Shown piece after piece: positions 2,476-21,865 of a stretch of 64,000 nt of DNA; within the stretch, counting starts at the first letter, position 1, and each line of letters begins with the position of its first letter. The translations under genes and the position numbers were made by a program. The DNA is from Tremella fuciformis (taxonomy: Eukaryota > Basidiomycota > Tremellomycetes > Tremellales > Tremellaceae): NCBI GenBank assembly GCA_032768795.1, contig CP136490.1, positions 744,001 through 808,000 of the forward strand, given 5' to 3'. Under the pieces are notes generated by a model that had not been told where the DNA came from, searched no databases, and saw only the letters and a program-made list of their open reading frames with translations.

Positions 2476-3264
2476 TCTGGGGTCCGCTCTGGGGACTTTC
2501 TTTGCCTTAGCCATTAGTCATACACCAACACCATACAGTATAGTCGGATCACACTCTTTACACCACCACACTCTTTAATCGACACTCTTTTACCCTCCAC
2601 ACTCTTTCAACAACCTTCGACAACCTTCAACAACCTTCGACAACCTCCAACAACCTTCGACACCCTTCGACACCCAATTATTCCGACCCTCTTGCTTCAA
2701 CTGCTGGCCAGTTTGAATCAGATCCGACCCACATAGACACTAGGACACTAGGACACTTCAACAAAAAGCCTTAGGGATAAGGCAAAACACCAAAAGAACC
2801 AAAAATACTTGAGTAACATTTTTTTTTTTTTTTTTTTTTTCACTGTAAATAGACAGGGCGCCCTCTGTATAACTAATTTATTAGGTACCTACCCACTCCT
2901 CTTGGTCAGACCCTTTACTTGACCACTTCATCAACTTCATCATCTACTTCTCTCTTTGGTTGGCCAACCGCTTACCCATATCAGTTCGCGCAACTAGGTA
3001 AGTTATCCCCTCAGACTCCGGTGGAACTCTGGGAAGACCTACTGCAGAAGGTGAGCTATAGGCTCTTCTGTGCCCCTGTGCACCCCTCTATCTCTATCCC
3101 CTGATCACTAGCTGCATTGCGCTTTGATCATCTGTGCCCCAGCGCACCTATTCACTCTTACTATTCTTTGGGCTGCAGTGCGCCCTCATCTCTCCTACAA
3201 CACACCACCACCTTTCTCTTTTGCATTGGGGATACTCTTATCCCAAAGCTGACACACAGCCAAC
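2476..3264 (+). other. Element 1 leader with tandem repeats
   Basis: The untranslated leader is 789 bp. Immediately after the LTR, TCTGGGGTCCGCTCTGGGG is the presumed primer-binding site; I could not assign the tRNA. Six 10-bp units of CAACCTTCGA type fill 2611-2670. A run of 22 T lies at 2819-2840. Element 2 carries the counterpart of the leader in inverted orientation at 8361-9203. Confidence 0.7.
2611..2670 (+). repeat. 10-bp minisatellite in element 1 leader
   Basis: Six near-perfect copies of CAACCTTCGA. The same motif is expanded to eight units in element 2 (8991-9070, inverted). Confidence 0.8.
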
Positions 3265-4988
3265 ATGTCTACCAGGCCTGTCACACGCGGGCATCCTAAT
3301 CCTGCTTCAGTCCCTGCAGCTCCTGCTGCTGAGGATCCGACCACTCCCACTCCAAACCGCCAAAACAACACTGAGAACGACTCAATCCTCACCCCCTTGG
3401 TCATGGAGACCATCGACAACACCGACAACATTGACAACCCCGACAACCTCGATCACACCGACAACAACACCGATGACCAATCTTTCACCACTCCTGCCCC
3501 CGCTCATGACAACGACTTGGAACACGTCAGCCATGATGGACAACAGGAAAGTATCACTGACCTGCAAGCTCAGATTGCCTTGCTCCGACAGCAGCTTCAT
3601 GATATGAACCAGCAGCTGCAACAGAAGAGGCAAGATGCTCACACCAAAGAGCGAGAGCATGCTATCCAGCTGCAGGACATTCTCACAGCAGCTAGGCAAG
3701 ATGAAGAAGCTCACCAACAGGCCTTGGACGACTTGCAGTCAGCTGCTAGACACCGCAGTATCACATATACCGATGAGGATACTGGTAGTAATCATCCTAA
3801 GTTGAAAGCTTCAGACTTGCCCAAGTTTGGGGGCAAGGACAATGAAGATGTTGACCAGTGGATTGAAAAGGTCTCTGCTATCTTTGAGTACTCTGGCACT
3901 TCTGACAGGGCGCTTCTACAGCAGCTTCCTTTGATCCTGGTAAGCAAGGCTTCCACCTGGTTCACCCAGCTTGGCTCAGCGCGTCGTGCACAGCTCAAAA
4001 CCTGGGAAACTTGGAAAGATGCTTTGCGCAATGCCTTCTATTTGCCCAACCACAAGCTTACTCTGCGCAGGCAATGTTTGTACCGCACTCTGCGTACAAA
4101 TGAGACTTTCACAGACTATTTCCAAGACAAAACTAATTTACAGCGCTACGTCTACCCTCCTGGTACTCCTGATACAGACTTGATTGAGGATTTGCTGACA
4201 GGTATTCCTGTTAGCATGCACCCCTTGATCAAGGCTGGTGTTACACCTCTTATGACTCTGGAGGACTTCCGGCGACACCTGATGGACTTAGAGCCAGGCC
4301 TTCGAAATAGCTCTGCTGCTTACCGTGGTTTGAGTGCCCAGAACAGAAGTGTAAGTGTTCCTCTCCCAAGAGCTCACTATAACAGCCGCTCCAACACAAC
4401 ATCAAGCTTTCAAACCCCGACTACAATTCCAAGGACTCCCTGCTCCTGTGGGGAATATCATTGGAGAAGGGATTGCCCTCATCAACAAAAATCTGCAAAT
4501 CCGACAAATCGACCCTACTCGACGCCCACACGATCATTCTCACAACCGCCTGTGACTCGACCTCAACAACAATCGAATTATCTGAACCGATCCACTCCCT
4601 TCATTCCACCTCGCAACTCCGCCAACTCGACACCCAACAACAATGGCAACCGGTGGCAACCTCGATCCAATGTGGCTACCCTTGGCTCTTCTCCTAAACC
4701 TCAAATCAAGGCAATAACAAACTCTGTTTTGCTTGACAAGGAAGAGGATCTTACACATCGATCCTTTGAGATCAAAGCTAAGGACCAGCCTGCTTCTCTG
4801 TCTGAGATTGATAACCTGTCACTGGAGGATTCCCACAAGGATAAAACACCAGTCTTCACCTTGGCAAGGCTGAGTACTGTTGACTCCAGTGCACCTTTAC
4901 ACAAAGTCTGTATTGACTCTGGTTCCTCAATCTCTCTGATGGATGTGGACTATGCCAGACAAGTTCTTCCGAATGTCAAGAGGAATCC
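3265..4988 (+). CDS. Element 1 gag-pol, first part (gag and start of protease), interrupted
   Basis: The frame starts at ATG 3265. It has an Asp/Asn-rich N-terminus, a predicted coiled coil (about residues 95-160), a capsid-like retrotransposon gag domain (about 185-360), and a zinc knuckle of C-x-C-x3-H-x4-C form ending RRDC. The retropepsin active site DSGSS lies near residue 550. At 4988 the codon is cut by the inserted LTR of element 2, so the native frame reads only a few LTR-encoded residues to a stop. Joining 4988 to 9971, with one AATCC copy removed, continues exactly in frame into pol. The restored gag-pol frame is 5,604 bp, or 1,867 residues, without a frameshift between gag and pol. 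Confidence 0.9.
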
Positions 4989-5750
4989 TGTAAAGGTTCA
5001 GGTCAGCTGTGTTGAGAAACAGTTTACCTTCTTCCTAACATATAATAAAGCCAGCCTCTGTCTGTAAGACTGATAGCTGTGTTGGGTTCCTTCGCGATAG
5101 TCAATGTCACACAGAGCAACACTAGTAAGTAAGTCAGTTAGGGAAAGTAGGAGGGCAGAGCCCAGACTCTGAGAGAGAGGGAGAGGAATGAAGAAGAGTG
5201 GGGAGTCGGGAGTGAGAGAAGTAGGAGAAGAGGAGGTGATGATGGGTTCTCTCTCTCAGGCCTGGTTTATATACATGAAAGTCAGGCTGAGGAATCTACG
5301 GAGTACGTACGGTGTACGTACGATATCGTGGCGCGGCTGAGAAGTACGGAAGGAGAATCTACTACAAGAGGAAACTATTCTACGGGAGACACGGGGAGGA
5401 AACGGGTGTGGCTTAAAGGTCTGCTACGGATTGTCCAGACATCAGCCGTATTAGTGAGAGTGGAGCACGATTGTCAAATGGTGCAGGATCAGGCATGAGA
5501 GCTGAGGATCCTAGGTCGGATGGTGTGTCGGGTAAGGTCGTATTGTATCGTAGGTGGGTCCGAGGTGAGCCAGGCTGTGCTTTGGGCATCAGGCCTGAGG
5601 ATGGTGGATCGGATACGGCGTCGGGTGTAGTCGTGGTTATGTCGGTTGATGTCGGATTGAATGTCGGCTGAGGGGCAAAGGCAGAGGCCGTAGGGCTTTC
5701 TCCTAGTCATGTAGGGGACAGGCAGAGCGTCAGAGGGGCGGTCCACTACA
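4989..5750 (-). repeat. 3' LTR of element 2 (reverse orientation)
   Basis: 762 bp reading TGTAAAGG...CCACTACA on the plus strand. It is paired with 9204-9965; both share the same diagnostic bases that differ from the outer LTR pair. Confidence 0.93.
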
Positions 5751-5789
5751 TCACCCCGGGCGGCAGAGAAGCTTGGTCCCCAAGCTTGT
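5751..5789 (-). other. Conserved block upstream of the 3' LTR (element 2)
   Basis: 39 bp that match, inverted, the block just upstream of element 1's 3' LTR (21017-21055), although the internal DNA farther in is unrelated. It contains the hairpin-forming AAGCTTGG/CCAAGCTT and a purine-poor CCGCCCGGGGTGA segment. Its position is that of a polypurine tract or plus-strand priming signal. Confidence 0.6.
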
Positions 5790-6690
5790 GTGTATTTGAA
5801 GGGGTATGGATTGTGTGGTGTCAAGCACTGGCAGGGGTTGATACAGTTGGCTTCAAGCAAGTATTGACTGGCAGTTGGGGATAATTGGCACTGTGATTTT
5901 GGCAGGAGTTGATGGGTGACGGGTGTGATTGAGTCCAAGAGAGGGCCATTGAGTAGGCAAGAAAAGTCGATAGTGTGTTGATAAGTTGGTGGATTGTTGA
6001 GAGAGCTGTAGAGTTGGTGAAAGTGTGTGAGCCAGTTGGTGAATGTGTGTGAGCCTGCCAAGCTCATTTGCCAATGTGAGATGCCTCATGCTGAGCCTTG
6101 CTGATTGTCCTGTGTAGCATGTACACAGATCTCCTTGTTGTTCCCCCAAATGTTGTCATGTTGCTTGTGCCCATGTTGTAGCCTCAGGCAATCTGTTTTG
6201 TGTGATATGCGGTCTCCTTGTTGCTCTTGTTGAATCGGTATCCAGATGTTTGCGGTTTTGACAAGCCAGTTGGATGAAGTTTGACTCCAGGTGATAAGCT
6301 TGAAAAAGTTGTCGGTGTTGGTACAGTGTCGGTCGAAAGTGTATTGGTTGAACGTGTGGCTGAAGGTGACATGATGTCAATGTATTACAGCACCGTTTGC
6401 CCATTGTAGCACCTTGGTAGTTTGCCCAAGAAGCGATGAAAGACAGCAAGTCATGATGTGTCTTTGCTTGGGATGAATGGTCCAGTAGAGTAATTTTGTT
6501 GACCCTTGGGTGTGTGGTCGAACCATCGACAAAATCCAAGGTACTTGTCCTGCAAGCTGGTCATTGATTTGGGGAAGTGGATTTTGATCAGCTTTGTTAA
6601 CATTATTGATTTTTCTGAAATCAATGCAAAGTTGTTCCTTCCCTTTCTGTTGTACCAAAATAGAGGGTGAGTCCAGGGTGAATCAGATTC
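5790..6690 (-). pseudogene. Element 2 tail with degenerate reverse-transcriptase fragment
   Basis: Between about 6540 and 6720 on the minus strand, two frames together show the RT N-terminal signature (GVIEESDSPW, then LCIDFRKINNV) that is intact in element 1. The fragment is broken by frameshifts and followed by unrelated, non-coding sequence up to the LTR. No RNase H or integrase motif is present. Confidence 0.7.
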
Positions 6691-6761
6691 CTCAATAACT
6701 CCTTGTTTGACTGGCATATTGTTGGTTACCTTGTTGGAGAAATTGTTTGGGGAATTGAAGG

Positions 6762-6915
6762 GTTGATAGTCGGTTGGATAGTTGCAGATAGCCGTTGGTT
6801 GGATAGTCGGTTGGATATTTGGTCGGATAGTTGGTCGGATAGTTGGTTGAATAGTCGGTCGGATAGTCGGTTGGATCGGATATTTGGTCGGATAGTTGGT
6901 TGGATAATCGGTCGG
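6762..6915 (-). repeat. Minisatellite at the gag-pol deletion point of element 2
   Basis: About a dozen units with a 12-bp period (GGTCGGATAGTT type). On the minus strand it encodes Pro/Thr/Tyr repeats. It sits exactly between the end of gag and the RT remnant and has no counterpart in element 1, so it probably grew at the deletion junction. Confidence 0.75.
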
Positions 6916-6947
6916 TGGTAGAGAAGCCATGGCTGGCACTGACAGTC

Positions 6948-8360
6948 CTAGTTTGAGTTAGGTCGCCACTGTTTGCCATCATTGTTGCCTGTAGAGTTGA
7001 CTGAGTTGATAGGGGGCATGAATGTGGGATGATCCAAATGTTGTTGAGGTACAGTCACAGCTGATCCTTGGAAAGATTGTGTGGGGGAAGGTTGATTGCT
7101 TGGGTAGGATCGGTTTGTTGAAGATCCATAGCCTTGTCGATGTGGGCAATCCCTTCTCCAGTGGTATTCACAACAGGTACAAGGAGTCTTTGGGATGCTA
7201 GGCTGGTTCATCAAGCCTTTAGTCCAGCTAAGGTGGATGCTACTAGTGTCTCCAGGCAGAGGCACAATTTCACTTCTGTCTGTGATGGTGGGACCTTGGT
7301 GTGAGTCAAAGTTGCCTCTGAGGCCAGGCTCAACATCCATCAAGTGTCTTCTGAAGTCCTCAAGAGTGATAAAGGGTGTGATGCCTGCTTTAATCAAGGG
7401 GTGCATGCTTACAGGTATTCCTGTCAGCAAGTCCTCAATCAACTCTGCATCAGAAGTGCTTTGAGGATAGACATAGCGCTGCAGCTTAGTTTTGTCCTGG
7501 AAATAATCTGTGAAGGTCTCATTTGCACGCAGAGTGCGGTACAAACATTGCCTGCGCAGAGTAACCTTGTGATTAGGCATGTAGAAAGCATTGCGTAAAG
7601 CATCTTTCCAAGTAGCCCAGGTGCTGAGCTGTGCACGGCGTGCTGAGCCAAGCTGGGTAAACCAAGTGGAAGCTTTGCTGACCAGGATCAAAGGCAACTG
7701 CTGGAGAAGCGCCCTGTCAGAAGTGCCAGAGTACTCAAAGATAGCAGAGACCTTTTCTATCCATTGGTCAACATCTTCATCATCCTTGCCTCCAAATTTG
7801 GGCAAGTCGGAAGCCTTTAGCTTAGGGTGATTACTGACACCAGCTTCATCAGTATAAGTGGTACTGCGGTATCTAGTGGCTGACTGTAAGTCTTCCAGTG
7901 CCTGCTGATGCGCTTCTTCACCTTGCTTTGCTGCTGTGAGGATGTCCTGCAGCTGGGTAGCATGCTCTTGCTCTGTAGCACGAGTGTCATGCCTAGCCTG
8001 TTGAAGTTGCTGGTTGGCATCATGGAGCTGCTGTTGGAGCAAGGTGATCTGAGCTTGCAAGTCAGTGATACTTTGCTGTTGTCCATCATGACTGGTGTTG
8101 TGGTTGTCATTTTCATGAATCAGGGCTGGTGTGGTGAAAGAGTTGGAGACAGTGTTGTTGTTGTTGTCGTCGGTGTTGTTGTCGTTGTTGATGGTCCTAT
8201 TGGTGTTGTTGATGGTCTCCATGGCCAAGGGGGTGAGGATTGAGTCGTTTCCAGTGTTGTTTTGGCGGTTAGGAATAGGAGTGGTTGGGTCCTCAGCAGT
8301 AGGTGCTGAAGGGACTGAAGTCGGGTAAGGGTGCCGGCGGGTGGCAGGTCTGATAGACAT
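6948..8360 (-). CDS. Element 2 gag protein
   Basis: 470 codons from ATG 8360. It is collinear with element 1 gag along its length: the same N-terminal Arg/Pro start, Asn/Asp-rich stretch, coiled coil, capsid-like domain with the same conserved 'FGGKDDEDVDQWIEKV' segment, and a knuckle ending HWRRDC. It stops before any protease. Substitutions against element 1 gag are many but the frame is intact, which suggests gag function has been retained while pol was lost. Confidence 0.88.
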   Translation of the reverse strand: MSIRPATRRHPYPTSVPSAPTAEDPTTPIPNRQNNTGNDSILTPLAMETINNTNRTINNDNNTDDNNNNTVSNSFTTPALIHENDNHNTSHDGQQQSITDLQAQITLLQQQLHDANQQLQQARHDTRATEQEHATQLQDILTAAKQGEEAHQQALEDLQSATRYRSTTYTDEAGVSNHPKLKASDLPKFGGKDDEDVDQWIEKVSAIFEYSGTSDRALLQQLPLILVSKASTWFTQLGSARRAQLSTWATWKDALRNAFYMPNHKVTLRRQCLYRTLRANETFTDYFQDKTKLQRYVYPQSTSDAELIEDLLTGIPVSMHPLIKAGITPFITLEDFRRHLMDVEPGLRGNFDSHQGPTITDRSEIVPLPGDTSSIHLSWTKGLMNQPSIPKTPCTCCEYHWRRDCPHRQGYGSSTNRSYPSNQPSPTQSFQGSAVTVPQQHLDHPTFMPPINSVNSTGNNDGKQWRPNSN

Positions 8361-9203
8361 GTTGGTGATGTTTTGGCTTTTGGGATAAGAGTATCCTCAA
8401 TGCCAAAGAGAAAGGTGGTGGTGTGCTGTAGTAGGGTTGAAGAGAGATGAGGGCGCACTGCAGCCCTAGAAGTAGTAGGAGTAAAGAGAGGAGTGCACTG
8501 GGGCACAGATGGTCAAAGCGCAATGCAGCTAGTAACCAGAAGAGATAGAGGAGAGATGTGCACAGGGGCACGGAGGAGCCTATAGCTCACCTTCTGCAGT
8601 AGGTCTTCCCAGAGTTCCACCGGAGTCTGAGGGGATAGCTTACCTAGTTGCACGAACTGATATGGGTAAGTGGTTGGCCAACCAGAGAGAGAAGAGAGAA
8701 GTTGGAGTAAGAAAGATAGTTGAAGTAGGCGAAGTCGATAATGGTCAGGTAGCTAGTCTGACCAGATTGTGTTGTGTTGGGTATCTAATGAATTAGTTGC
8801 ACAGAGGGCGCCCTGTCTATTTACAGTGAAAGAAAGAAAATGTTACTCAAGTATTTTTGGCTCTTTTGGTGTTTTGCCTTATCCCTAAGGCTTTTTGTCG
8901 AAGTGTCCTAGTGTCCTAGTGTCTATGTGGGTCGGATCTGATTCAAACTGGCCAGCAGTTGAAGCAAGAGGGTCGGAATAATTGGGTGTTGAAGGGTGTT
9001 GAAGGATGTCAAAGGTTGCTGAAGGTTGCTGAAGGTTGTCGAAGGTTGTCGAAGGTTGTCAAGGGTTGTTGAAAGAGTGTCGATCAAAGAGTGTGGTGGT
9101 GTAAAGAGTGTGGTGATGTAAAGAGTGTGATCCGACTGTACTGTATGGTGTTGGTGTGTGACTAATGGCTAAGGCAAAGAAAGTCCCCAGAGCGGACCCC
9201 AGA
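8361..9203 (-). other. Element 2 leader
   Basis: Untranslated leader between gag ATG and 5' LTR. It contains eight 10-bp units (8991-9070) of the same minisatellite as element 1, and the inverted primer-binding-site sequence directly beside the LTR (GGACCCCAGA at 9194-9203). Confidence 0.7.
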
Positions 9204-9965
9204 TGTAAAGGTTCAGGTCAGCTGTGTTGAGAAACAGTTTACCTTCTTCCTAACATATAATAAAGCCAGCCTCTGTCTGTAAGACTGATAGCTGTGTTGG
9301 GTTCCTTCGCGATAGTCAATGTCACACAGAGCAACACTAGTAAGTAAGTCAGTTAGGGAAAGTAGGAGGGCAGAGCCCAGACTCTGAGAGAGAGGGAGAG
9401 GAATGAAGAAGAGTGGGGAGTCGGGAGTGAGAGAAGTAGGAGAAGAGGAGGTGATGATGGGTTCTCTCTCTCAGGCCTGGTTTATATACATGAAAGTCAG
9501 GCTGAGGAATCTACGGAGTACGTACGGTGTACGTACGATATCGTGGCGCGGCTGAGAAGTACGGAAGGAGAATCTACTACAAGAGGAAACTATTCTACGG
9601 GAGACACGGGGAGGAAACGGGTGTGGCTTAAAGGTCTGCTACGGATTGTCCAGACATCAGCCGTATTAGTGAGAGTGGAGCACGATTGTCAAATGGTGCA
9701 GGATCAGGCATGAGAGCTGAGGATCCTAGGTCGGATGGTGTGTCGGGTAAGGTCGTATTGTATCGTAGGTGGGTCCGAGGTGAGCCAGGCTGTGCTTTGG
9801 GCATCAGGCCTGAGGATGGTGGATCGGATACGGCGTCGGGTGTAGTCGTGGTTATGTCGGTTGATGTCGGATTGAATGTCGGCTGAGGGGCAAAGGCAGA
9901 GGCCGTAGGGCTTTCTCCTAGTCATGTAGGGGACAGGCAGAGCGTCAGAGGGGCGGTCCACTACA
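9204..9965 (-). repeat. 5' LTR of element 2 (reverse orientation)
   Basis: 762 bp, TGTAAAGG...CCACTACA on the plus strand. It appears identical to 4989-5750 and is followed by the AATCC duplication. Confidence 0.93.
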
Positions 9966-9970
9966 AATCC

Positions 9971-12900
9971 ACTTGATAAATTTGAGCTTCGAGGCTTAGG
10001 AAGAAGCAATGCTGTCGCGTGGATTGAAGTTGACCTAAACTTCTTGATCCAAGAGCCAGTGTTAGCAAATCCTAAGCAACCAGTCACCATCCGTCCAGAG
10101 CTAACAATGGATCACACCACTGTTCCAGTTGCCTTCTACTTGGTCCCCAGCCTGGTTACCAAGATTATTGTTGGGAACGACATTCTTGCACCCCTTGGGG
10201 CAAATCTCGACTTATCTGCAAACTCTCTTACTTTCAAGAACTTGTACGGCACCATTCCTATAACCTGCCGACAACCAAGACAAAATTCGACAACACTCCC
10301 TCAGTCTTTGCCTTCAATCCAACTGAAGGAATCCTATACCTTTGAGCCTGGTTACCAGTACCATGTCCCTGTCAGTATAGACAGACTTCCTTCGACCCCC
10401 TTCTACATGAATCGGCCACTATCAGTTGGAACCAATCTTTTTGTGGGACGATCTGTTGGAAGGACCAATGCAACAGAGCATCTGGCTTGCCTTGTACATC
10501 TAGGTAAGACTCCCATAACTCTCAAAGCAGGGACGAAGCTGGGCAGGCCAGTGCCAGCAATATCTCGACTACCACCAATCAACAACAACATCGACAAATC
10601 CGACCACAAACACTTCGACCAACAAAGCAATCAACAATCCGAACAACCTCTCACCAACAATGCGAACCAAATCTTTGATCTTGACAGTCATCAAGCCAAT
10701 TTCCCTGTCGAGGACATACAAATCAATCCTGACCTTACCTCATCACAGAAAGATCAGTTGACTTCTGTCCTGCAAAACAATTTCATGGCCTTCGGTTATG
10801 GAAACCGTATACTTGGTTCTACCACCCTGGCAGAGATGACCATTGATACTGGTGAAGCTCAGCCAATTTCACAGCCGCCATATCATGCCTCTCCTGCTGG
10901 ACGTCAAATCATTGATGATACCCTGGCTGAGTTGTTAGAACAAGGAGTCATTGAAGAATCTGACTCACCGTGGGCATCACCCGCAATTTTGGTGAGACAG
11001 AAAGGGAAGGATCGACTTTGCATTGATTTCAGAAAAATCAATAACGTTACCAAAGCTGATCAATATCCACTTCCTCGAATCGATGACATCCTAGCTCAGT
11101 TTGCAGGGAAACAGTGGTTCAGTACTTTCGACGCAAACAAAGGATTCCATCAAATACCAATCTCAGAGGACGACCGACCAAAATCCGCATTCCGAACACA
11201 CCGAGGATTACACCAATGGAAACGCATGCCTTTTGGCCTGCGTAATGGACCACCAGTCTTTCAACGCTTCATGGACAAAGTCCTAGGCCGTTACAAATGG
11301 CAGATTGCTCTGGTGTACATCGACGACATTATCATCTTCAGCGACACTTTCGAATCTCACCTCACCGACATCGACACTATCCTCAAGCTCATTACACGCA
11401 GTGGGGTTACACTTAGCCCTGGAAAATCTCGAATTGCTTTCCAAAGCATTGATGCCCTGGGTCACTCAATAAGCAATCTTGGCATAGGCACCTTGCCAAA
11501 TTCAATTGCTGCCATTGCTGAGATGCAACCGCCTGCAAATGTCAAACAGTTGCAGCGCTATCTGGGAATGTGCACTTACTATCGAAGGTTTGTGCAGAAC
11601 TTCTCCTCCATTGCATCGCCACTACATGCCTTGCTATCCAAAGATACCAAGTATGAGTGGACGTCAGAATGTCAGAAAGCCTTTGAAAAGCTAAGAGAGC
11701 TCCTGACAAGCGCACCCATCCTAGCGCATCCTGACTATACTAAACCTTTCTTGGTATACACGGATGCATCCACCATAGGACTTGGTGCTGTGCTTGCTCA
11801 ACTAGATGACAAGCATCAAGAGCATCCCATCTGCTATCTCTCGAGATCACTGGCACCTGCAGAAAAGAACTACACAGCAAGTGAGCTGGAGTGTCTCGGC
11901 ATTGTCTGGGCTATAACAAAGCTTCAACCATTCTTGGATGGTGCCAAGTTTACCCTCATTACCGACCATTCAGCCCTTCAATGGCTCTTTGATTTCAAGG
12001 GAGCTAATCGTAGGCTGCTCAGATGGTCAATGGAACTCCAGCCCTATCGAGGACTGATGACCATAAGACATAGAGCTGGCCGCCTTCACTCCAACGTGGA
12101 CTGCCTCTCACGAGCACCGCTCCCAGAAATCAATACTGCAAGTACCAGCGATGTAGAAATGTCAGTAGAACCTGTCATTGACTCCAGCCTGTTTGCCTCA
12201 AGCACAAGGCTGTCAAAGGAGTTTATAGACCGCGTTAAAGAAGGGTACAAGCATGACAAGCAATTGCTTGAAATTCTCAACAACCTAAGGTCTGAAACCC
12301 CCAATCCAGCCAATGCTAGATTCACACTAGACAGTGAGGGTCTACTCACATTCAAAGACATTCTTACAGGGCATGAACGCCTCTGTATCCCCGACCACAA
12401 CCGACTTCGCCTCGACATCCTTCACGACACACACGACGCTATCAGTGCTGGACACCTTGGTATTCATAAAACACTCTCCCTCATTGTCCGACAATTCTTT
12501 TGGCCAGGCCTTCACAAAGATGTGAGGACATATGTACGGTCATGTGAATCCTGCCAACGGAACAAAGCTTCAGCTGAAGGCCCATCAGGTCTGCTTCAAC
12601 CGCTTCCCATTCCACCGCAGCGATGGCACACAATTGCAATGGACTTTGCAGGCCCGCTTCCTCATTCAGGCAGAGAGAAGTTTGACATGATACTAATAGT
12701 GACAGACAAGCTATCAAAACGATCCCATTTTATACCGACACATTCAACCGACAAAGCCACCGACACAGCACGACACATATTCGACAATATAATCCGACTA
12801 CACGGCATTCCTCGAGTCATTGTATCTGATCGAGACACAAAATTCACCTCCCAGTTTTGGCAAGCCCTTTTTGCACGGTTTGGTACCAAGCTGGCTATGT

Positions 12901-13850
12901 CTACTCCATACCATCCGCAAACAGACGGTCAGTCTGAACGCATGGTGAGGACAGTGAAGGAAATGCTACGACACTACGTGAACTACCGACAAGACAACTG
13001 GGTTGATCAACTACCGGCGCTAGAGTTTGCATATAATTCGGCAATACAGCAGTCCACCGGCCTTTCCCCATTTGAACTTGACTTGGGATACAAGCCACTC
13101 TCACCACACGACTGCCTCTCCGACACCCACACCAAAGTCCCTGCTTCCGACGAATTTATCGACCACCTCAACACCTTACTCCAGCAGGCACAGGACTCCA
13201 TTGCAATGGCACAACGACAACAGGGACTCCAATACAACAACAATCGCCAACTACGACCATTCTCTGTAGGCGACCAAGTCATGGTCTCCACCTCTTACAT
13301 CCGCCCGCCATTCCTTCGAACACCGGGATCTCAAAAGCTACGAGCTAAGTATTTTGGGCCTTTCAAAGTAATCAAAGTGGTCAGTCCAACATCCTACGAG
13401 ATAGACCTTCCACCACATGTGCAAGCCCACCGGGTAATCAACACACAATACCTTCGCCAATATCGAGAAAACACATTTCCGGGCAGAACACAGCCGCCTC
13501 CTCCGCCTGTGGAGGAAGCAACACATGACACTGCTCCAAGCTATGAGGTTGACAGCATCCTAGACCACAGAACAACCCGTGGAAAAACAAGCTACCTTGT
13601 CCACTGGAAAGGCTATGAGCACCATGACGACACATGGGAGCCGGAAGCCAACCTGGACTCTGCACCACTGGCTCTACAGCAGTACTGGGCATCTAGGGAC
13701 CACAAACAGGGCCCAATGCATCGTCAGGAGCCATCACGGCAGTCCCGGATGCATGCACGACTTTCACGGCAAAGGACGGATCACAAATCCGATTTACGTG
13801 CACGGACCCGTAATGCACGTGCCGTGACCCGTGTGGCATTAGAAGCTTGA
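9971..13850 (+). CDS. Element 1 gag-pol, second part (protease end, RT, RNase H, integrase, chromodomain)
   Basis: This continues the frame cut at 4988; the first internal ATG in this half is 10044. In order: end of the retropepsin; reverse transcriptase with LCIDFRKIN and the YIDD catalytic box; RNase H (VYTDAS, SELECLGIVW, TDHSALQWL); integrase with HHCC zinc finger (H...H...C-x2-C), then the D...D...E core (MDFAGPLP, VIVSDRD, PQTDGQSER); and a C-terminal chromodomain (YLVHWKGYEHHDDTWEP). All catalytic residues are present and there is no internal stop. The protein is defective only because element 2 separates it from gag. The chromodomain places it among chromoviruses. Confidence 0.95.
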
Positions 13851-13983: not shown

Positions 13984-14017
13984 ATGAGTGACTTTCCACT
14001 CTCTCTGACCCAACTCC

Positions 14018-14335
14018 CGACGGAATCGTAGCTCTGAGGCAATGGGATTCCGGTCACCTGTTGCCCGCTCAGCACTTGCTATGAGTGATGCATTCGGACT
14101 TACCTGTTGCCCGCTCAGCACTTGCTATGAGTGATGAGGAGGGCAACAGGCGGCGGCATTCTACAAGGTCGTCGAGGGTGTCGGCGTTATAAGCGGAGTT
14201 ATCGTTGGTGGCAGATTCTCTGCCTCGTCGAGGGTGAACCTCGTCGAGGCACAACCTCGTCGAGGATCGAGTAGCCTCGACGAGGTTACTCGAAGATGAG
14301 TCAAGCTCATGTGAGCGTACCACCTATTTCCGTCG
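14018..14335 (-). repeat. 3' LTR of the copia element
   Basis: 318 bp. It contains a 35-bp direct repeat (14056-14090 and 14102-14136) and several CCTCGTCGAGG palindromes between about 14220 and 14290. Its terminal 8 bp form the inverted repeat CGACGGAA/TTCCGTCG. Confidence 0.93.
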
Positions 14336-14344
14336 CCTCCCCTC
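14336..14344 (-). other. Polypurine tract of the copia element
   Basis: GAGGGGAGG in element sense, directly against the 3' LTR, as expected for plus-strand priming. Confidence 0.75.
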
Positions 14345-14354
14345 GCGAGCATGT

Positions 14355-17300
14355 CTATTGACTCATCTGCCCTCCTTCTCCTTGTCTTTCCAATCCCAGT
14401 AACTGCCGGAGCTGTCTTGTCTTCTCGGCCGAAAGGGTCTTGGTCAGGATGTCGGCTCGATTGCTGTCCGTTGGTGTGTATTTGAGCTCAAGCAGACCAC
14501 CAGCTTGATGCTCTCGTATCCACTGGGCTCGCATGTCGAATGCTTTGTTCAACTTGAACCCGTGTTGATGTTTGGCCAGTTGAATGGCCCCATTGTTGTC
14601 GTTGTAGATGGGCACTGCTCCATCTATGCCTAGGTCGAGGTCGTTCAATAGTTGCCTGAGCCATATTGCCTCTTTGCCCGCTTCTGTCGATGCAAGGAGC
14701 TCTGCCTGTGTCGTTGACAGTGCGACTGTCGGTTGTCGCCTGCTTTTCCATGATACGATGCCTCCGTAGGTGTTGAAGATATAGCCAGTTGTTGATCGGC
14801 GTGTATCGAGACATCCACCCCAGTCTGCGTCCGCCCATCCCAACAGTGCTCGTCTCCCTCCATGAGCATCGAAGGTGAGAGCAAGATCCGAGGTTCCTCG
14901 AAGATACCTCAGTAGGTGCTTTGCGGCCCTCCAATGCGCGAGTGACCATTTGCTTATGAAGCGACACAGCAGTGAGGCTGCGTAGGCGATGTCGGGTCGG
15001 GTGATAGTGGCGATATAGAGGATTGACCCGGCGAGTGCAGGAAACGGTTTGTCTCGAGCCTCCTCGACCTCCTTTGGCGTAGCCTCGACGAGCTTTGCGT
15101 CTGGCAAGATTGTCTTGCAGGCTTTCCCGGTTTCACCGAAGCGTTGAAGAACTGCCTCGATGTAGTGCTCTTGTGATAGGTACATCTTCTTGTTTGGCCT
15201 GTCTCGGTAGATGTTGATACCGAGGAAGTATGAGACCGGTCCTTGATCCTTGCACTCAAGTTCCTTGTCGATCCTCCGCTTGATCTCGTCGATTGTTGAT
15301 CGATCGTTGCCGGCTATGAGCATGTCGTCAACATGGACTGAGATCATGCACCGCTTGTGTCCTTGTCGCAGCGAGTAGATGCATGGGTCCGCTAGGGTCG
15401 GTTTGAAGCCTAGCTCCCGTAGGAACTCGTCGAGGCGCTTGTTGAACAAGTGCGGTGATTGTCGGAGACCGTATAATGACTTCCGGAGGTGCAGGACGTG
15501 ATCGGCAGCGATGTCGCTACCTTCTGGTGGCTCGATGAAGATGTCCTTGTCGATATTGGCCTTGAGGAATGCGCCGATGATGTCGATTTGGTCGCATTCC
15601 CAGTCGAGGTAGTTAACGATGGTGAGGAATAGGCGGAATGAAGACTTGTGGGTGACCGATGCAAAGAGTTCGTCGAAATCCCGTCCTGAGACTTGTTGGA
15701 ACCCTCTCACGACGAATCTAGCCTTGTATTGGCTTGCTTTGCCCGTGTCCCCGTCGATTTTGCGGGTGAAGACCCATTTGCCTGTAAGGGTGCGGTGGTT
15801 CTCTCTGGGGACTTTCTCCCACACTCCGTATTTCTCCATCTTTGTCATCTCCTCGTCCATGGCCCTGTTCCACTCCTCCCAGTCTGCAGCTCGACGAGCT
15901 TCGGTGTATGACTGAGGGTTGGTGAGTGACTGGGCTGATAACGCGTGCTCGATGGCTACTCGGTTATAGTCCATGTCGATGTCGTGCAGAGGGTGATGAC
16001 TGGGCTCTTGACCTGCTAGTCTCCCGGACCGTCTTGGTTCATCTGCATCGGCCTCTATGGGCTGGTTTAGCCGACGATCTGGATCCTCTGGTCCGTCGTC
16101 GGGGTTCGGTTCTGGGCTCGGTGCATCCTCTCGAATGTATTCGTTGGCCCAGCCTCTCCCTTGCCTTGGCACGGCTTGGGGAGGTATGTCGTCCATCTCT
16201 TCCCTTTGTTCCTCTTCTTCTGGTGCCTCCCCTGCCTCGACTATCTCGTTCAGCTCGATTGATGTATCGTCATCCTCGTCGAGGCTCGTCGATGCTTGTC
16301 GAGGTTCAGGTTGAGGCGGCTCCAGAATCCGTCGCGGTTCATCTGAGCGTGGCGTTGTCTTCTTGCCCGTGATGAATGTAACGTCTCGACTTGCGATGAC
16401 CCTGTTGGTTTGGGTCAACACCTTGTAGCCCCAGCTCCCTTCTGTGTATCCCAGCAGTCGACCGCATTGACCCCGCTCGTCGAGCTTTGATGCGGGGCTC
16501 ACAACTCGATAGATGCAGTGTTGGCCAAATGGCTGCATTCTTTCATATCGTATGTCAATGTCGTGATGTGGTCGAAAGAGAGCGACAGGGATTTTTCCTT
16601 GGGAGTCTGGTAGCCTGTTTCTGGTGAAGACTACATATCGTAGTGCGTCGACCCAGAATTGACTTGACAGGTTCGAGTCCGCGAGACATGTGCGGATGTC
16701 ATTGAGGATGGTGAGATGGACGCGCTCGACTCGACTGTTTTGATTGTGTGCGTCGGTCGGCGTGAGGGTATGCTCAATTCCCTTGCTTTTACACCAGTGG
16801 CTGAATTCCTTGCTCGTGAACTCGCCTCCTTGGTCTGAGCGGATGGTCTTGACCGTTCGATCAAGCTGATTCTCTGCCAACTTGATGTAGTCTTGTAGTG
16901 CTTCGGCTGCATCCGACTTCTTCTTGATTGGTATAGCTTGCACAAATTTGCTATGGTCGTCGTAGCAGGTGAGGAAGTATTGGAAGCCTTCTCTCGACTG
17001 GACGGTCGCTGGTCCCCATAGATCGACTGATACCTCGACGAGGGGTTTGCCGGCTCGACGCGGGTTAGGTAGAGATGCCGAGCGCGTTGCCTTTCCTTTC
17101 AGGCAATCCATGCATTCGACTCTCCGAAACAATCCCGTCCACTTTGCGCCTAGCTTCCCCTCTTTCCCGAGCTCCCAGACCTTCCTCATGTTCGAGTGAC
17201 CTAGGCGCTTGTGCCAGGTGAGGAGGCGGTTGTCTTCGGCTTCAGTGTTTTCTCTTGCCTGAAGTGCTCGGTGAATGCGCGAGGTGGTGCGTACCGGTGT

Positions 17301-18656
17301 GTCGTCTACAACCCATAGGTTGCCGAGCTTCTTGCCCCGGAGGATGACCTTTCCTTTCTCGACCAATGTAGCCGAGTCACTCGAGAAGCGCCAATGGGTC
17401 CCTGTGTATGGACCGAGGCGCTGTGTGGAGAGGAGGTTGTGCGTGAATGAGGGGACATAGAGGGCGTTCTTGTACCATACGTTCTCGAATGTCAGGCGGC
17501 CGGAGTGTGTAGCCTCGACAATTGACCCATCTCCGATCTGGATTTTGATGGGCTTGTCGAGCTTGGTGAGGTGGGAGAGGAGGTGTTTGTCCTTGATAAA
17601 CGGACTTGTAGCACCGCTGTCGATGATGATGGAAGTGGAGGGAAGGTTATCGTGGGCGTGCAGTGCGATCTCTGTCGCATAATAGCCTTCCTCCTTTATC
17701 TCCCTCGACGAGCCTCTCTTGGCCTCACTTGATGAGTCGTCTCCTGACTCGCTCTGCTCTCTCGCCTTCATTCCCTTCCCCGCTTGTCCTCCTTGCTTCT
17801 TCCTCCTGTCTGCTTCCTTTGCCGACCTCTGCTCCTGGATGTGCTTCGGCACTCCAATCACTTTCCAGCACTCATCTGTGGAGTGCCTCCCCTGGTCCGG
17901 ATGGTGGATGCATCTCTTGCCTGCCGGTTTTGGTAGAGATTTGCTGAGCATCCCCATCTCGTTTACGCTCTCGCCCTTTTGTTGACGTCTGCGATGTTCA
18001 TCGGCGACCCTATCGATAACCTCGTCGAGGTGGATCTTGTTCGACGAGGTCCCTGAGTAGAAGGTCGATGCGAGGAGGCCGTATGAGGACGGTAGGCGAC
18101 GGATGGCGGCGTATGCGCCAATCTGGTTGGCGAATTGCTCAAGGGTGAGCTTGGAAGTGATGGCGGAGGAGGTGATTTCGGCCAGTTGCGACCGGATAGC
18201 TGTGAGATGAGGTTCGGGGTCCTCATTCTCTGGGATGGTCTCGCCAAATATCGATGACCATAATTCGGCTAGGCGAGATCCGTTGTCGGCCCCATATGTG
18301 GTGACCAGATGATCGTAGAGCCCCTTCGGTTGAGGATTCTCGAAGTCGATCAGGTTCGAGGGAAGCTTGTTTTGGACAGTCTCTGTCAGACTGCCATAGA
18401 GAGTGGAGAGGGCGGTGGACTGCTCCTTCTCATGCTCGTATAGAGCAACTGCTCTCTTTGATGTCTCGGCTGCTGTCGCCGGACTTGACACTGGATATCG
18501 AGCCTCGACGAGTGCCCGAATCGCTGACGCGTCCTTGGTGATGTGGGGTACGAGACCGGCGGATCCGAGGACGACTCGAATCTCGCGCACCCACTGGGCG
18601 TAGTTGTCGCGCCCGTTGAGCTTGCGCTCCTCTTTCACCGTCTGCACAGATGGCAT
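14355..18656 (-). CDS. Copia gag-pol polyprotein
   Basis: 1,433 residues in one frame. In order: gag of UBN2 type (about 1-230); a zinc-binding motif C-x2-H...H-x4-C near 250; aspartic protease DSGAT near 345; GAG-pre-integrase (LLTWHKRLGHSN); integrase core with D (VSVDLWGP), D (RSDQGGEF) and E (NSRVERVH); an acidic linker; reverse transcriptase (YKARFVVRGFQQ, QIDIIGAFL, VHVDDMLIAGND); and RNase H (GWADADWGG, STTQAELLA, NNGAIQLA). Order IN-RT is that of Ty1/copia. All catalytic positions are kept. It ends 19 bp before the 3' LTR block. Confidence 0.96.
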   Translation of the reverse strand: MPSVQTVKEERKLNGRDNYAQWVREIRVVLGSAGLVPHITKDASAIRALVEARYPVSSPATAAETSKRAVALYEHEKEQSTALSTLYGSLTETVQNKLPSNLIDFENPQPKGLYDHLVTTYGADNGSRLAELWSSIFGETIPENEDPEPHLTAIRSQLAEITSSAITSKLTLEQFANQIGAYAAIRRLPSSYGLLASTFYSGTSSNKIHLDEVIDRVADEHRRRQQKGESVNEMGMLSKSLPKPAGKRCIHHPDQGRHSTDECWKVIGVPKHIQEQRSAKEADRRKKQGGQAGKGMKAREQSESGDDSSSEAKRGSSREIKEEGYYATEIALHAHDNLPSTSIIIDSGATSPFIKDKHLLSHLTKLDKPIKIQIGDGSIVEATHSGRLTFENVWYKNALYVPSFTHNLLSTQRLGPYTGTHWRFSSDSATLVEKGKVILRGKKLGNLWVVDDTPVRTTSRIHRALQARENTEAEDNRLLTWHKRLGHSNMRKVWELGKEGKLGAKWTGLFRRVECMDCLKGKATRSASLPNPRRAGKPLVEVSVDLWGPATVQSREGFQYFLTCYDDHSKFVQAIPIKKKSDAAEALQDYIKLAENQLDRTVKTIRSDQGGEFTSKEFSHWCKSKGIEHTLTPTDAHNQNSRVERVHLTILNDIRTCLADSNLSSQFWVDALRYVVFTRNRLPDSQGKIPVALFRPHHDIDIRYERMQPFGQHCIYRVVSPASKLDERGQCGRLLGYTEGSWGYKVLTQTNRVIASRDVTFITGKKTTPRSDEPRRILEPPQPEPRQASTSLDEDDDTSIELNEIVEAGEAPEEEEQREEMDDIPPQAVPRQGRGWANEYIREDAPSPEPNPDDGPEDPDRRLNQPIEADADEPRRSGRLAGQEPSHHPLHDIDMDYNRVAIEHALSAQSLTNPQSYTEARRAADWEEWNRAMDEEMTKMEKYGVWEKVPRENHRTLTGKWVFTRKIDGDTGKASQYKARFVVRGFQQVSGRDFDELFASVTHKSSFRLFLTIVNYLDWECDQIDIIGAFLKANIDKDIFIEPPEGSDIAADHVLHLRKSLYGLRQSPHLFNKRLDEFLRELGFKPTLADPCIYSLRQGHKRCMISVHVDDMLIAGNDRSTIDEIKRRIDKELECKDQGPVSYFLGINIYRDRPNKKMYLSQEHYIEAVLQRFGETGKACKTILPDAKLVEATPKEVEEARDKPFPALAGSILYIATITRPDIAYAASLLCRFISKWSLAHWRAAKHLLRYLRGTSDLALTFDAHGGRRALLGWADADWGGCLDTRRSTTGYIFNTYGGIVSWKSRRQPTVALSTTQAELLASTEAGKEAIWLRQLLNDLDLGIDGAVPIYNDNNGAIQLAKHQHGFKLNKAFDMRAQWIREHQAGGLLELKYTPTDSNRADILTKTLSAEKTRQLRQLLGLERQGEGGQMSQ

Positions 18657-18753
18657 GACGGAGGACCACTTCGAGGCTGGCGGTGCGTAGGCAAGGTCGA
18701 CGAGTTTGTTGACGCGTTCTATCTACCGCGACTTGTCGAAGGAGACGTTACCA

Positions 18754-19071
18754 CGACGGAATCGTAGCTCTGAGGCAATGGGATTCCGGTCACCTGTTGC
18801 CCGCTCAGCACTTGCTATGAGTGATGCATTCGGACTTACCTGTTGCCCGCTCAGCACTTGCTATGAGTGATGAGGAGGGCAACAGGCGGCGGCATTCTAC
18901 AAGGTCGTCGAGGGTGTCGGCGTTATAAGCGGAGTTATCGTTGGTGGCAGATTCTCTGCCTCGTCGAGGGTGAACCTCGTCGAGGCACAACCTCGTCGAG
19001 GATCGAGTAGCCTCGACGAGGTTACTCGAAGATGAGTCAAGCTCATGTGAGCGTACCACCTATTTCCGTCG
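18754..19071 (-). repeat. 5' LTR of the copia element
   Basis: 318 bp, matching 14018-14335 base for base as far as I can see, including the internal 35-bp direct repeat. It is followed by the ACTCC duplication. Confidence 0.93.
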
Positions 19072-20765
19072 ACTCCTGCAAGCCCAAGCGGCCCAAGCGG
19101 CCTGGGACGCCCAACAGACCTTCGAGGATCATCACGCTTCGATTCCAGAGCCCCTAGGACTTTGGGGGAACCTCAACAGTGAGCCTGACCCCCACTTCCC
19201 TACTCTTCAATCGCTTTTGCAGCACTCTTCCCGGTCTAGCTCCGTCAATTTCTTGCCGATTTTGACGTGCTTTCGATATGTTACTCACAAAAATTAGATC
19301 TCGCGATAGACTCCAAAAACACCGAGATACCTGCTGCCGTTCCCGAGATACCGGCCGTTGCTTCCGACCCTACAGACAAGGGTAAAGGCAGACTCATGGA
19401 CACAGATGTGGACATGGGTGAGCATTTCTCTCGCATATTCATGATCTCTACATGCTGTAAGCTCTCTGAACGAGCGCTCACAGGCTTAGATGGCGATTTC
19501 AATGACTTCATGGACTGGGAACCAGAGATTCCATTCTCAACCCAGACTCTGCCTGAAACGAAATCAAACTCCTCTCAAAATGCAGCTACCGACGCACAGA
19601 GGGTATTGCCAGGTTTGTCTTGATCATATCTTTCGAACAAGCCCCTGCTCAGTCCTCTAGCTGTCAATCTCGACGAGCTCTGGGCGGGATTGGAGGACAC
19701 CCCTTACAACCCATTTTCGCTTTCAGAATACATGGGGGACGCATTCCCTTCAATTACTACATCAGAATCGAGCGGTAGTGAGTCAAGTCCTTAACAAAAT
19801 CTCTTCTCCTGAGTCCTACGCAACACCTCGCTTTGAGATTTTCTCAATAGCTTCTCTCGTTCTGGACTTACAGGCAGATCTGGGCGAACCCTTCTCTTTC
19901 AACTCATCTGCACCGCTCCCAGACATCCACAGTACCCAATACTGCCCCGAACCGGCCGAAACTCGGTGCAACCCTGCTCCAGGAACTTATCTTGGACTGG
20001 ACGGTCAGAATATGAGCCTAGCATACCTGGAAGGCGAGCTGCAGCGCTTGGCAAATGACCCAATTATCGCCCACTTTATTGAGGTCAATAACAACCCTGG
20101 TATGCCCCTTGTGACTTATCTCGCTCGTTTTTTGACATAATTCAGAAAACTCTTCGCGAGCACCTGCCAAAGATCAATCCAAAGCGAACAAGTCCTTCCA
20201 CGCATCTGGAAGTGGAGTCTACAGCGAGCTAGGCCAAAACGCGCAACGCACCAAAAGCGACTCACTTTCCTCTTACAATTCCAACCCCTCTGGTCAGTCT
20301 TTCTGAAGCAACTTGCTCAAAACTGATCCGTTTTCAGAAAACTCTTCACGAGCATGCTCAGAAGACTCTTACGGAACGGTGGACACCTTATGGAAGCTCC
20401 TACAGCAAGTAGGAACGAAGCGCCCCAATCTACAAGCGACAGCTCCTTCCATCAACTCTCAACAACCTCAATCACCTGCTGAGGCTTCCCCAGACTGGGA
20501 AATTGTCCGGTTTGAGCTCAGAACCACTGGGACCCATCCCTCTATCGACTACAAGCTTTACAAAGGCGTTTCACGCGGTTCCAACAAGCTGAAAACGATG
20601 AGAGAGCGACCACTTCTGTCCTCTCCCCAAGGAAGGCAAGCCTTTCACACCTTTTGGTCTGGTAAGCCCTGGGTACCTCCCAAGCGCGCTAGACAGTACC
20701 TGGACATCACAGAGACCGATGGCAGTCATCTAGACTATATTCCAGACCTTTGGAACGACTCATAG

Positions 20766-21055
20766 ATCTTCCACAGCTCCCCCTCTACCCCTTTCCTCTT
20801 TCATAGAGTTCGTTTTTGGGTTTTCCAGCCAGACTTTCTCTGTCGCTTTTGAACTTATAGAGAAATTATAAAACACCAAAAACGAGTAGAGGATGCAGTT
20901 TTCTACTTGCCCACCAAGTTTCATTGGGGTAGCTTCAAAACTGAGCGACTTTTCTTAAGAGGGTATTTCATCCAGTATAAGCAGCCTTTGTGCCACTCAG
21001 AAGTGCCACACAGATCACAAGCTTGGGGACCAAGCTTCTCTGCCGCCCGGGGTGA
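20766..21055 (+). other. Element 1 tail between ORF3 and 3' LTR
   Basis: No coding frame of note. The last 39 bp (21017-21055) repeat the block found beside the 3' LTR of element 2, including the AAGCTTGG/CCAAGCTT hairpin. This shows that the DNA carrying ORF3 is joined to genuine retroelement sequence on this side. Confidence 0.7.
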
Positions 21056-21813
21056 TGTAGTGGACCGCCCCTCTGACGCTCTGCCTGTCCCCTACATGAC
21101 TGGGAGAAAGCCCTACGGCCTCTGCCTTTGCCCCTCAGCCGACATTCAATCCGACATCAACCGACATAACCACGACTACACCCGACGCCGTATCCGATCC
21201 ACCATCCTCAGGCCTGATGCCCAAAGCACAGCCTGGCTCACCTCGGACCCACCTACGATACAATACGACCTTACCCGACACACCATCCGACCTAGGATCC
21301 TCAGCTCTCATGCCTGATCCTGCACCATTTGACAATCGTGCTCCACTCTCACTAATACGGCTGATGTCTGGACAATCCGTAGCAGACCTTTAAGCCACAC
21401 CCGTTTCCTCCCCGTGTCTCCCGTAGAATAGTTTCCTCTTGTAGTAGATTCTCCTTCCGTACTTCTCAGCCGCGCCACGATATCGTACGTACACCGTACG
21501 TACTCCGTAGATTCCTCAGCCTGACTTTCATGTATATAAACCAGGCCTGAGAGAGAGAACCCATCATCACCTCCTCTTCTTCTATTCCTCTCACTCCCGA
21601 CTCCCCACTCCTCTCTACTCCTCTCTCTCTCAGAGTCTTGGCTCTGCCCTCCTACTTTTCCTAACTGACTTACTTACTAGTGTTGCTCTGTGTGACATTG
21701 ACTATCGCGAAGGAACCCAACACAGCTATCAGTCTTACAGACAGAGGCTGGCTTTATTATATGTTAGGAAGAAGGTAAGCTGTTTCTCTACACAGCTGAC
21801 CTGAACCTTTACA
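21056..21813 (+). repeat. 3' LTR of element 1
   Basis: 758 bp. It matches 1718-2475 at all positions that distinguish the two LTR subfamilies in the window, and is followed by GCAAG. Confidence 0.95.
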
Positions 21814-21825: not shown

Positions 21826-21865
21826 CAGTCATCCACCTAGTTATGCATACCCCCCACTTATGCAT
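21826..21865 (+). repeat. Left TIR of pogo-type transposon
   Basis: 40 bp, the exact reverse complement of 23696-23735. It contains an inner inverted pair around TATGCATA that may bind the transposase. Confidence 0.95.

What the first reader, a model, noticed from the sequence alone, without database searches (positions are those of the whole stretch)
13984..20765. A sense-strand gene with six spliceosomal introns sits inside an LTR retrotransposon, between pol and the 3' LTR
Seen: after removing the nested copia element, a 431-residue frame runs in seven exons, all six introns have GT-AG ends and phase 1, and all internal exons are multiples of three. Seen: the host element has matching 758-bp LTRs and a 5-bp TSD, and the retroelement-specific 39-bp block lies just past ORF3. 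Known: LTR retrotransposons copy themselves through RNA, which should erase sense introns. Identical-looking LTRs mean this copy was made recently, so its genomic RNA apparently passed through reverse transcription unspliced. Inference: the element may make both unspliced genomic RNA and a spliced ORF3 mRNA, as retroviruses do for accessory genes, or it captured a host gene very recently. The protein belongs to no family I know.
Basis: partly seen in the sequence, partly recalled or inferred. Interest (0 to 1): 0.92.

Follow-up and report, generated by a model that had tools for sequence, protein, structure and literature searches.

The report
Intron-bearing accessory gene in fungal retrotransposon
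A fungal jumping element that copies itself through RNA carries, in the same direction as its own genes, an extra gene cut up by about six introns that should have been lost in copying; two separate copies of the element both kept them, so its genome RNA seems to escape splicing.

Summary
Window 1718-21813 is a Ty3/gypsy chromovirus (identical 758-bp LTRs, TSD GCAAG) broken by two nested elements. A second copy without those insertions lies at C8:126237-136279 (LTRs 757 of 757 identical, TSD CCGAC, unrelated flanks). It has the same sense-strand gene between pol and 3' LTR: seven exons, six GT-AG introns, all phase 1, 432 aa. Searches of the genome found two copies of the pol 3' end and two of ORF3, side by side both times. 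The best spliced frame is 1437 nt; 200 shuffles reach at most 732. Silent divergence of ORF3 between copies (0.075) matches gag (0.060) and pol (0.090), which argues against very recent capture. Exon 7 is under purifying selection (dN/dS 0.14, P=0.008); exons 1-6 are not demonstrably so. Hence sense introns passed reverse transcription at least once per copy. Five introns are needed to keep the frame in the window copy; intron 2 is optional. Splicing is inferred; no RNA data were available. No relative was found among 5.8 billion proteins, only a weak one in a host-like locus. Best reading: a resident accessory gene made from spliced subgenomic RNA while genomic RNA stays unspliced, as in retroviruses and Cer1.

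The parts
1718..2475 (+). 5' LTR of the host Ty3 chromovirus
   Evidence: 758 bp, identical to 21056-21813; TSD GCAAG
2437..2442 (+). splice-donor-like site AAG|GTAAGC in the LTR, 39 nt before its end
   Evidence: kept in both copies; not tested against chance, use as a donor is inferred
2998..3003 (+). leader splice-donor-like site TAG|GTAAGT
   Evidence: kept in both copies, inside four alignment rows (240 nt) without differences
3051..3056 (+). leader splice-donor-like site AAG|GTGAGC
   Evidence: kept in both copies
3265..4988 (+). gag and start of the single gag-pol frame
   Evidence: 98% to C8 copy; dN/dS 0.105 from 3517 on; start codon read by eye, in frame
4989..9965 (-). nested same-family element, gag-like and a scrap of RT, no match to ORF3 (TSD AATCC)
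9966..13850 (+). rest of gag-pol: protease region, RT, RNase H, integrase, chromodomain
   Evidence: 97.3% to C8 copy, no stops, dN/dS 0.111; Pfam domains found on the C8 copy
13984..14017 (+). ORF3 exon 1, first piece (broken by the copia insertion)
14018..19071 (-). nested copia element, LTRs beginning CGACGG and ending CCGTCG, TSD ACTCC
   Evidence: read; repeat; absent from the C8 copy; copia type is my reading
19077..19178 (+). ORF3 exon 1, second piece (after the TSD copy 19072-19076)
19179..19297 (+). intron 1 (119 nt, GTGAGC..AATTAG)
   Evidence: length not 3n, stop in read-through frame
19298..19417 (+). ORF3 exon 2
19418..19483 (+). intron 2 (66 nt); could also be read through in both copies
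19484..19612 (+). ORF3 exon 3
19613..19660 (+). intron 3 (48 nt)
   Evidence: stop if read through, both copies
19661..19777 (+). ORF3 exon 4
19778..19877 (+). intron 4 (100 nt; 99 in C8 copy)
   Evidence: three stops if read through, both copies; the only indel inside the gene
19878..20099 (+). ORF3 exon 5
20100..20145 (+). intron 5 (46 nt)
   Evidence: stop and frameshift, both copies
20146..20292 (+). ORF3 exon 6
20293..20337 (+). intron 6 (45 nt)
   Evidence: stop if read through in the window copy only
20338..20765 (+). ORF3 exon 7 (basic C-terminal 141 aa and stop)
   Evidence: dN/dS 0.137, 7 silent: 3 replacement, P=0.008
21016..21055 (+). family-specific block before the 3' LTR (where a polypurine tract would lie)
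   Evidence: shared with nested same-family element and C8 copy
21056..21813 (+). 3' LTR
   Evidence: identical to 5' LTR

Best explanation
ORF3 is a resident, sense-strand accessory gene of a fungal Ty3 chromovirus. Shown from sequence: it has the form of a six-intron gene, sits between pol and the 3' LTR in both copies found, and is present with its introns in two independent insertions, each of which went through reverse transcription. Inferred: the LTR promoter makes (1) full-length RNA that leaves the nucleus unspliced and is packaged and copied, and (2) spliced RNA that makes ORF3 protein. Intron loss is prevented because RNAs on which the ORF3 introns are spliced are not templates for new copies. 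The likeliest reason is that they are also spliced from a conserved donor-like site in the LTR or leader (2437, 2998 or 3051), which would remove gag-pol and, from 2437, the region after the LTR where priming starts. A second safeguard may be that genes of such fungi often need introns to be expressed, so intronless copies would lose ORF3. The protein (acidic N-terminal half, basic conserved C-terminal domain, no membrane segment) is most likely a nuclear regulator of the element's RNA or chromatin, not an envelope.
For: Two independent copies with different TSDs, each with identical LTRs. ORF3 found only in them and in both. Spliced frame far beyond shuffles. All 12 splice boundaries kept, donor hexamers identical in 6 of 6 introns, although introns differ at 19 of 423 sites. 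No indel in the exons (exon 1 gaps shown came from a misregistered start; one search aligns it without gaps). Exon 7 dN/dS 0.137, P=0.008; ORF3 dS 0.075 vs gag part 0.060 and pol 0.090. Three donor-like sites kept in LTR and leader. Acidic/basic layout, no hydrophobic segment. Precedents: Cer1 gRNA and CERV (PMC10309623: abstract and two sections); intron-dependent expression in Cryptococcus (PMC3744415: abstract start in listing; PMC5851062: passages).
Against: No RNA data: neither the splicing of ORF3 nor leader-to-ORF3 splicing is shown, and the donor-like sites were not tested against chance. Exons 1-6 show no significant constraint (14 silent: 25 replacement, P=0.22). Only two copies exist. 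Intron 2 is optional and intron 6 is readable in the C8 copy. One of 46 host tile-strands also gives a spliced frame above 1437 nt. No primer-binding site was tied to a tRNA. LTRs differ less between copies (98.4% identical) than silent sites do, so exchange among family members is possible and weakens dating from LTR identity. Function is a guess from composition; the exon 7 model was too poor to use (pLDDT 47.6).
Confidence: 0.6

Rival explanations
1. ORF3 has its own promoter just upstream (pyrimidine-rich 133-nt gap after pol). Only the short internal transcript is spliced, and the long LTR-driven RNA escapes splicing for unrelated reasons such as fast export. This overlaps with the best explanation in all but the promoter.
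For: The 133-nt gap before the ATG looks pyrimidine-rich (sequence, judged by eye). The plant Grande accessory gene is reported to have its own promoter (title in the reference list of PMC11963269).
Against: The same six introns lie in the long RNA too, so this alone does not explain why that RNA stays unspliced. No promoter was tested.
Confidence: 0.25
2. ORF3 is passive cargo: a host gene taken in at DNA level and carried along intact, with no role for the element.
For: Two copies only; exons 1-6 not demonstrably constrained; weak relative in a host-like locus at C1:1537302-1537592.
Against: Exon 7 constrained (P=0.008); exons open in both copies apart from the copia insertion in the window copy; silent divergence like gag-pol.
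Confidence: 0.2
3. The six introns are not introns; the region is non-coding or coded otherwise.
For: No RNA evidence; intron 2 is open and 3n, intron 6 is open in one copy; one host tile-strand reaches a similar spliced length.
Against: Spliced frame far outside the range of 200 composition-matched shuffles and absent on the reverse strand; six GT-AG pairs intact in both copies; selection on exon 7.
Confidence: 0.06
4. The second copy arose by DNA duplication or conversion rather than reverse transcription, so the introns never met an RNA stage.
For: LTRs can be homogenised by conversion (general knowledge).
Against: Different TSDs, no homology found outside the LTR ends, complete element ends.
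Confidence: 0.04

Closest known systems
Cer1 / CERV (C. elegans LTR retrotransposon)
   Same: Extra protein from a spliced RNA of an LTR element whose genomic RNA keeps splice sites; CERV is needed for export of unspliced gRNA (PMC10309623: abstract, sections 6 and 15).
   Different: Here the introns lie inside the accessory gene and hold no other known coding sequence. ORF3 has 3 scattered cysteines, no cysteine-rich loop. Function untested.
ORF3s of bdelloid rotifer LTR retrotransposons
   Same: Extra ORFs after pol; the paper states that ORF3s in LTR retrotransposons are typically expressed from spliced messages (PMC5408684: passages).
   Different: The word 'intron' does not occur in that paper's held text. 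Its ORF3s are env, DEDDy, GDSL, CC or TM types, whereas ours matches no Pfam family.
Intron-bearing plant elements Ogre and EVADE
   Same: LTR elements with functional introns that make spliced subgenomic RNA (PMC12786077: passages; the Ogre paper itself was not held).
   Different: EVADE: the splice removes the protease domain; Ogre: intron in the gag-pol part (recalled). Here the gag-pol frame of the C8 copy is open throughout and the introns are in an extra gene.
Antisense accessory genes of plant Retand/Grande elements
   Same: Extra gene between pol and 3' LTR (PMC11963269: passages).
   Different: Introns of an antisense gene would not be spliced from the sense genomic RNA; the present gene is sense. 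Antisense frames of this kind were also seen in other Ty3 loci of this genome.

Membership tests
Ty3/gypsy chromovirus | LTR pair with TG..CA ends and TSD | tested here: met
   both copies
Ty3/gypsy chromovirus | RT, RNase H, then integrase, C-terminal chromodomain | tested here: met
   Pfam RVT_1, RT_RNaseH, rve, Chromo in that order on the C8 copy
Ty3/gypsy chromovirus | tRNA primer-binding site | tested here: inconclusive
   14-nt candidate matched no tRNA gene
Env-bearing retrovirus-like element | ORF3 with transmembrane segment | tested here: not met
   highest 19-residue mean hydropathy 0.68; no Pfam envelope match
Cer1-CERV type regulator | protein from spliced RNA | not testable with these tools
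   no RNA data
Cer1-CERV type regulator | cysteine-rich loop | tested here: not met
   3 cysteines in 432 aa, at 190, 198, 297
Cer1-CERV type regulator | needed for gRNA export | not testable with these tools
   needs an experiment
Transduced host gene (Bs1 type) | clear host parent gene | tested here: inconclusive
   one weak relative, E 0.016, 26% over 97 residues; score 84 vs maxima 55 and 56 in two sets of 1000 shuffles
Transduced host gene (Bs1 type) | introns lost through the RNA stage (expectation recalled, from no call) | tested here: not met
   six introns by sequence

The most novel reading that the evidence does not exclude
The element guards six sense introns of no other known content through repeated reverse transcription by making splicing and template use mutually exclusive: any RNA on which ORF3 is spliced also loses the leader and priming region, and ORF3 protein itself holds the genomic RNA unspliced. 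This would be a Rev/CERV-like circuit arisen independently in a fungal retrotransposon.
Probability: 0.22. Interest if true: 0.85.

Novelty: new variant of a known kind. Interest (0 to 1): 0.62.

Why it matters
A fully spliced RNA used once as template would erase all six introns at a stroke, and since the introns hold no other known coding sequence nothing obvious would select against the loss. Their presence in two independent insertions whose lineages differ by 6-9% at silent sites points to strict separation of template RNA from spliced RNA, or to a strong need for the introns. Both can be tested directly with RNA from one fungus.

Tried and rejected
Late insertion of ORF3 into one copy (rejected: both copies have it). 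Very recent host capture (disfavoured: silent divergence as in gag-pol). Envelope gene (rejected: no membrane segment). Antisense gene (rejected: reverse-strand spliced frame 159 nt; 390 over the whole gap). DNA-level duplication (disfavoured: TSDs and flanks). No family: two Pfam hits, best E 0.21, both below cut-off; two searches of 5.8 billion proteins, none at E<=1 (7995 top candidates scored) and none at E<=10, both limited to relatives sharing exact 5-residue words; PDB sequences none at E<=1. Relatives of the pol in viral contigs: none. Full-length pol relatives of 54-58% identity come from unnamed metagenome sources, and of 53% and 50% from Cryptococcus floricola and Sympodiomycopsis kandeliae (best 120 of 1849 listed); their 3' flanks could not be read. 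tRNA primer not found. Exon 7 structure unusable, so no fold search was run. The host was not identified; 'basidiomycete' is a weak inference from the named pol relatives, which also include a non-basidiomycete fungus and algae.

In the survey of other Ty3 loci an LTR pair was found at 9 of 10 examined; 3 further loci were asked for and not supplied. The ten were picked by frame length as probably different families; L043 and L045 are in fact close (LTRs 85% over 303 nt). The sense/antisense length test on their 4 gaps exceeded the shuffle maximum only for L033 antisense, and the 95% level but not the maximum for L045 antisense; L043 and L047 did not exceed chance by length.
Full report
What is there. 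Window 1718-21813 is one LTR retrotransposon. Its LTRs (1718-2475, 21056-21813) are identical over 758 bp and flanked by GCAAG on both sides. Two other elements sit inside it: an antisense member of its own LTR family at 4989-9965 (TSD AATCC) and an antisense copia element from 14018 to 19071 (ends and TSD read). The copia element splits exon 1 of ORF3, so the ORF3 copy in the window is broken today.

Second copy. A search of the whole genome (28.1 Mb, 11 contigs) with the ORF3 region gave two places, the window and C8:133542-135428 (96%). The pol 3' end also gave only these two (97%), and the ORF3 protein search gave the same two places plus one weak hit (11 matches in all). The C8 element spans 126237-136279: LTRs 757 of 757 identical, TSD CCGAC, homologous to the window element from LTR to LTR; no match longer than 80 bp at E 1e-10 lay outside it. 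It has none of the nested insertions. One uninterrupted frame of at least 1783 codons encodes gag, RT, RNase H, integrase and a chromodomain. Every other Ty3 match listed for this genome is at most 37% identical in pol (46 of 382 candidates scored). The LTR search listed 46 matches, 24 of them full length; I did not sort them into pairs and solo LTRs beyond the two copies, the nested element and two further pairs about 4.2 kb apart.

ORF3. In the C8 copy the gene reads without any editing: seven exons, introns of 119, 66, 48, 99, 46 and 45 nt, all GT-AG and phase 1, 432 aa. Window exon lengths also sum to 432 codons plus stop, not 431. All six donor hexamers are identical between copies and all acceptors end in AG, though introns differ at 19 of 423 compared sites. 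Introns 1, 3, 4 and 5 contain stops or shift the frame in both copies; intron 6 has a stop only in the window copy; intron 2 could be read through in both. So five introns are compelled in the window copy, four in the C8 copy. A spliced-ORF search of the C8 gene gives 1437 nt with four introns used, against median 117 and maximum 732 in 200 dinucleotide shuffles; the reverse strand gives 159. Over the whole pol-LTR gap the values are 1482 sense, 390 antisense, 747 at most in 60 mononucleotide shuffles. A control that tempers this: 23 tiles of the rest of the window, both strands, ranged from 0 to 1455 nt, one of 46 exceeding 1437. These tiles are richer in GC (0.546-0.675 against 0.508), hence poorer in stops, and presumably hold host genes, whose places I did not map.

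Age and selection. Between the copies silent divergence is 0.075 for ORF3, 0.060 for the gag part and 0.090 for pol. ORF3 therefore diverged along with the element. Exon 7: 7 silent and 3 replacement changes, dN/dS 0.137, P=0.008 in 5000 neutral simulations. Whole ORF3: 21 and 28, P=0.024. Exons 1-6: 14 and 25, P=0.22. So purifying selection is shown for the C-terminal exon only. Within each copy LTRs are identical while the copies differ by 6-9% at silent sites, so most divergence built up before either copy landed; each landing was a separate passage through reverse transcription with the introns in place. A caveat is that LTRs differ less between copies (98.4% identical) than silent sites do, so exchange among family LTRs cannot be excluded.

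How it may work. Sense introns survive only if template RNA stays unspliced. Three sites matching a donor-like pattern are conserved at 2437 (in the LTR, 39 nt before its end), 2998 and 3051 (leader), the last two in a stretch of 240 aligned bases without differences; they were not tested against chance. Splicing from one of these into ORF3 would yield an ORF3 mRNA lacking gag-pol and, from 2437, the region after the LTR where priming should start; such RNA could not spread intronless copies. This is inference. A second, compatible safeguard is intron-dependent expression: in Cryptococcus neoformans removing introns greatly lowers mRNA for most tested genes (abstract start of PMC3744415 in the listing), and inefficiently spliced transposon RNAs there are sent to RNAi (passages of PMC5851062). 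Whether this fungus behaves likewise is unknown. The protein has an acidic first 236 residues (charge -28), a basic C-terminal domain (pI 9.3) and no hydrophobic segment, which suggests a nuclear regulator rather than an envelope. In Cer1 of C. elegans a protein from a spliced RNA is required for export of unspliced genomic RNA (PMC10309623); that is the closest working model, not a family assignment.

Origin. No Pfam family, no relative in two searches of 5.8 billion proteins, no PDB sequence. In the own genome one frame at C1:1537302-1537592 matches exon 7 (26%, E 0.016); the local score is 84 against maxima of 55 and 56 in two sets of 1000 shuffles. The 4.8-4.9 kb fetched on either side of that locus show no LTR pair and include a protein-kinase-like frame, recognised by eye. 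It may be a distant host relative of the donor gene; this is tentative.

Comparison within the genome. At 10 other Ty3 loci examined, an LTR pair was found at 9, and 4 of these have a 0.9-2.4 kb gap between pol and 3' LTR. There the notable frames are antisense, with cysteine-rich proteins. Two loci, L043 and L045, share one (score 238 against a shuffle maximum of 49), but these are sister families (LTRs 85% alike over 303 nt). The L045 gene appears to have GT-AG introns on the antisense strand (my reading). By length alone only L033 antisense exceeded all shuffles. Antisense introns would pose no problem for copying. Among the loci looked at, the sense gene of this finding is the exception.

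Literature. Ten searches were run: eight on extra or intron-bearing genes in LTR elements, two on fungal introns. In their listings and in the passages read I saw no fungal LTR element with a multi-intron sense accessory gene. The library holds open-licence papers only, so this is not proof of absence. [quoted passage not shown] which element has it I could not see. Gene capture by LTR elements in general was seen in passages of PMC6431247 and PMC7264820.

Verdict. Observation confirmed with small corrections; the retrovirus-like reading is the best supported; recent capture is disfavoured; splicing and function remain to be shown.

Noticed in passing
L045 (C11:71201-77000) 75-1545; L043; L047; L033: Other Ty3 loci of this genome carry antisense cysteine-rich frames between pol and 3' LTR; sister families L043 and L045 share a related protein, and the L045 gene seems to have antisense GT-AG introns.
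   Followed up: partly
window 14018-19071: Copia element whose LTRs begin CGACGG and end CCGTCG instead of TG..CA; 41 matches to the LTR query listed in the genome, one of them partial, a lower bound.
   Followed up: no
window 4989-9965; C1:4293416-4298327; C9:107187-112179: Short members of the same LTR family, judged by LTR spacing; the nested one keeps gag-like sequence and a scrap of RT but shows no match to ORF3. The other two were not read.
   Followed up: partly
window about 21826-23740: Next to the 3' LTR lies a long frame resembling a pogo-type transposase, flanked by inverted ends holding ATGCATAAGTGGGGGGTATGCATAACTAGGTGGATGACTGT; recognised by eye, not tested.
   Followed up: no
C1:1537302-1537592 (L026, L029): Frame in a host-like locus with weak similarity to ORF3 exon 7.
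   Followed up: partly
window 20137-20165 and 20328-20360: Acceptor and first codons of exons 6 and 7 look near-identical (both encode ENSSRA), and all introns are phase 1, hinting at growth of the gene by exon duplication.
   Followed up: no
LTRs of both copies: LTRs differ by 1.6% between copies while silent sites of gag-pol and ORF3 differ by 6-9%; constraint or exchange among family LTRs.
   Followed up: no
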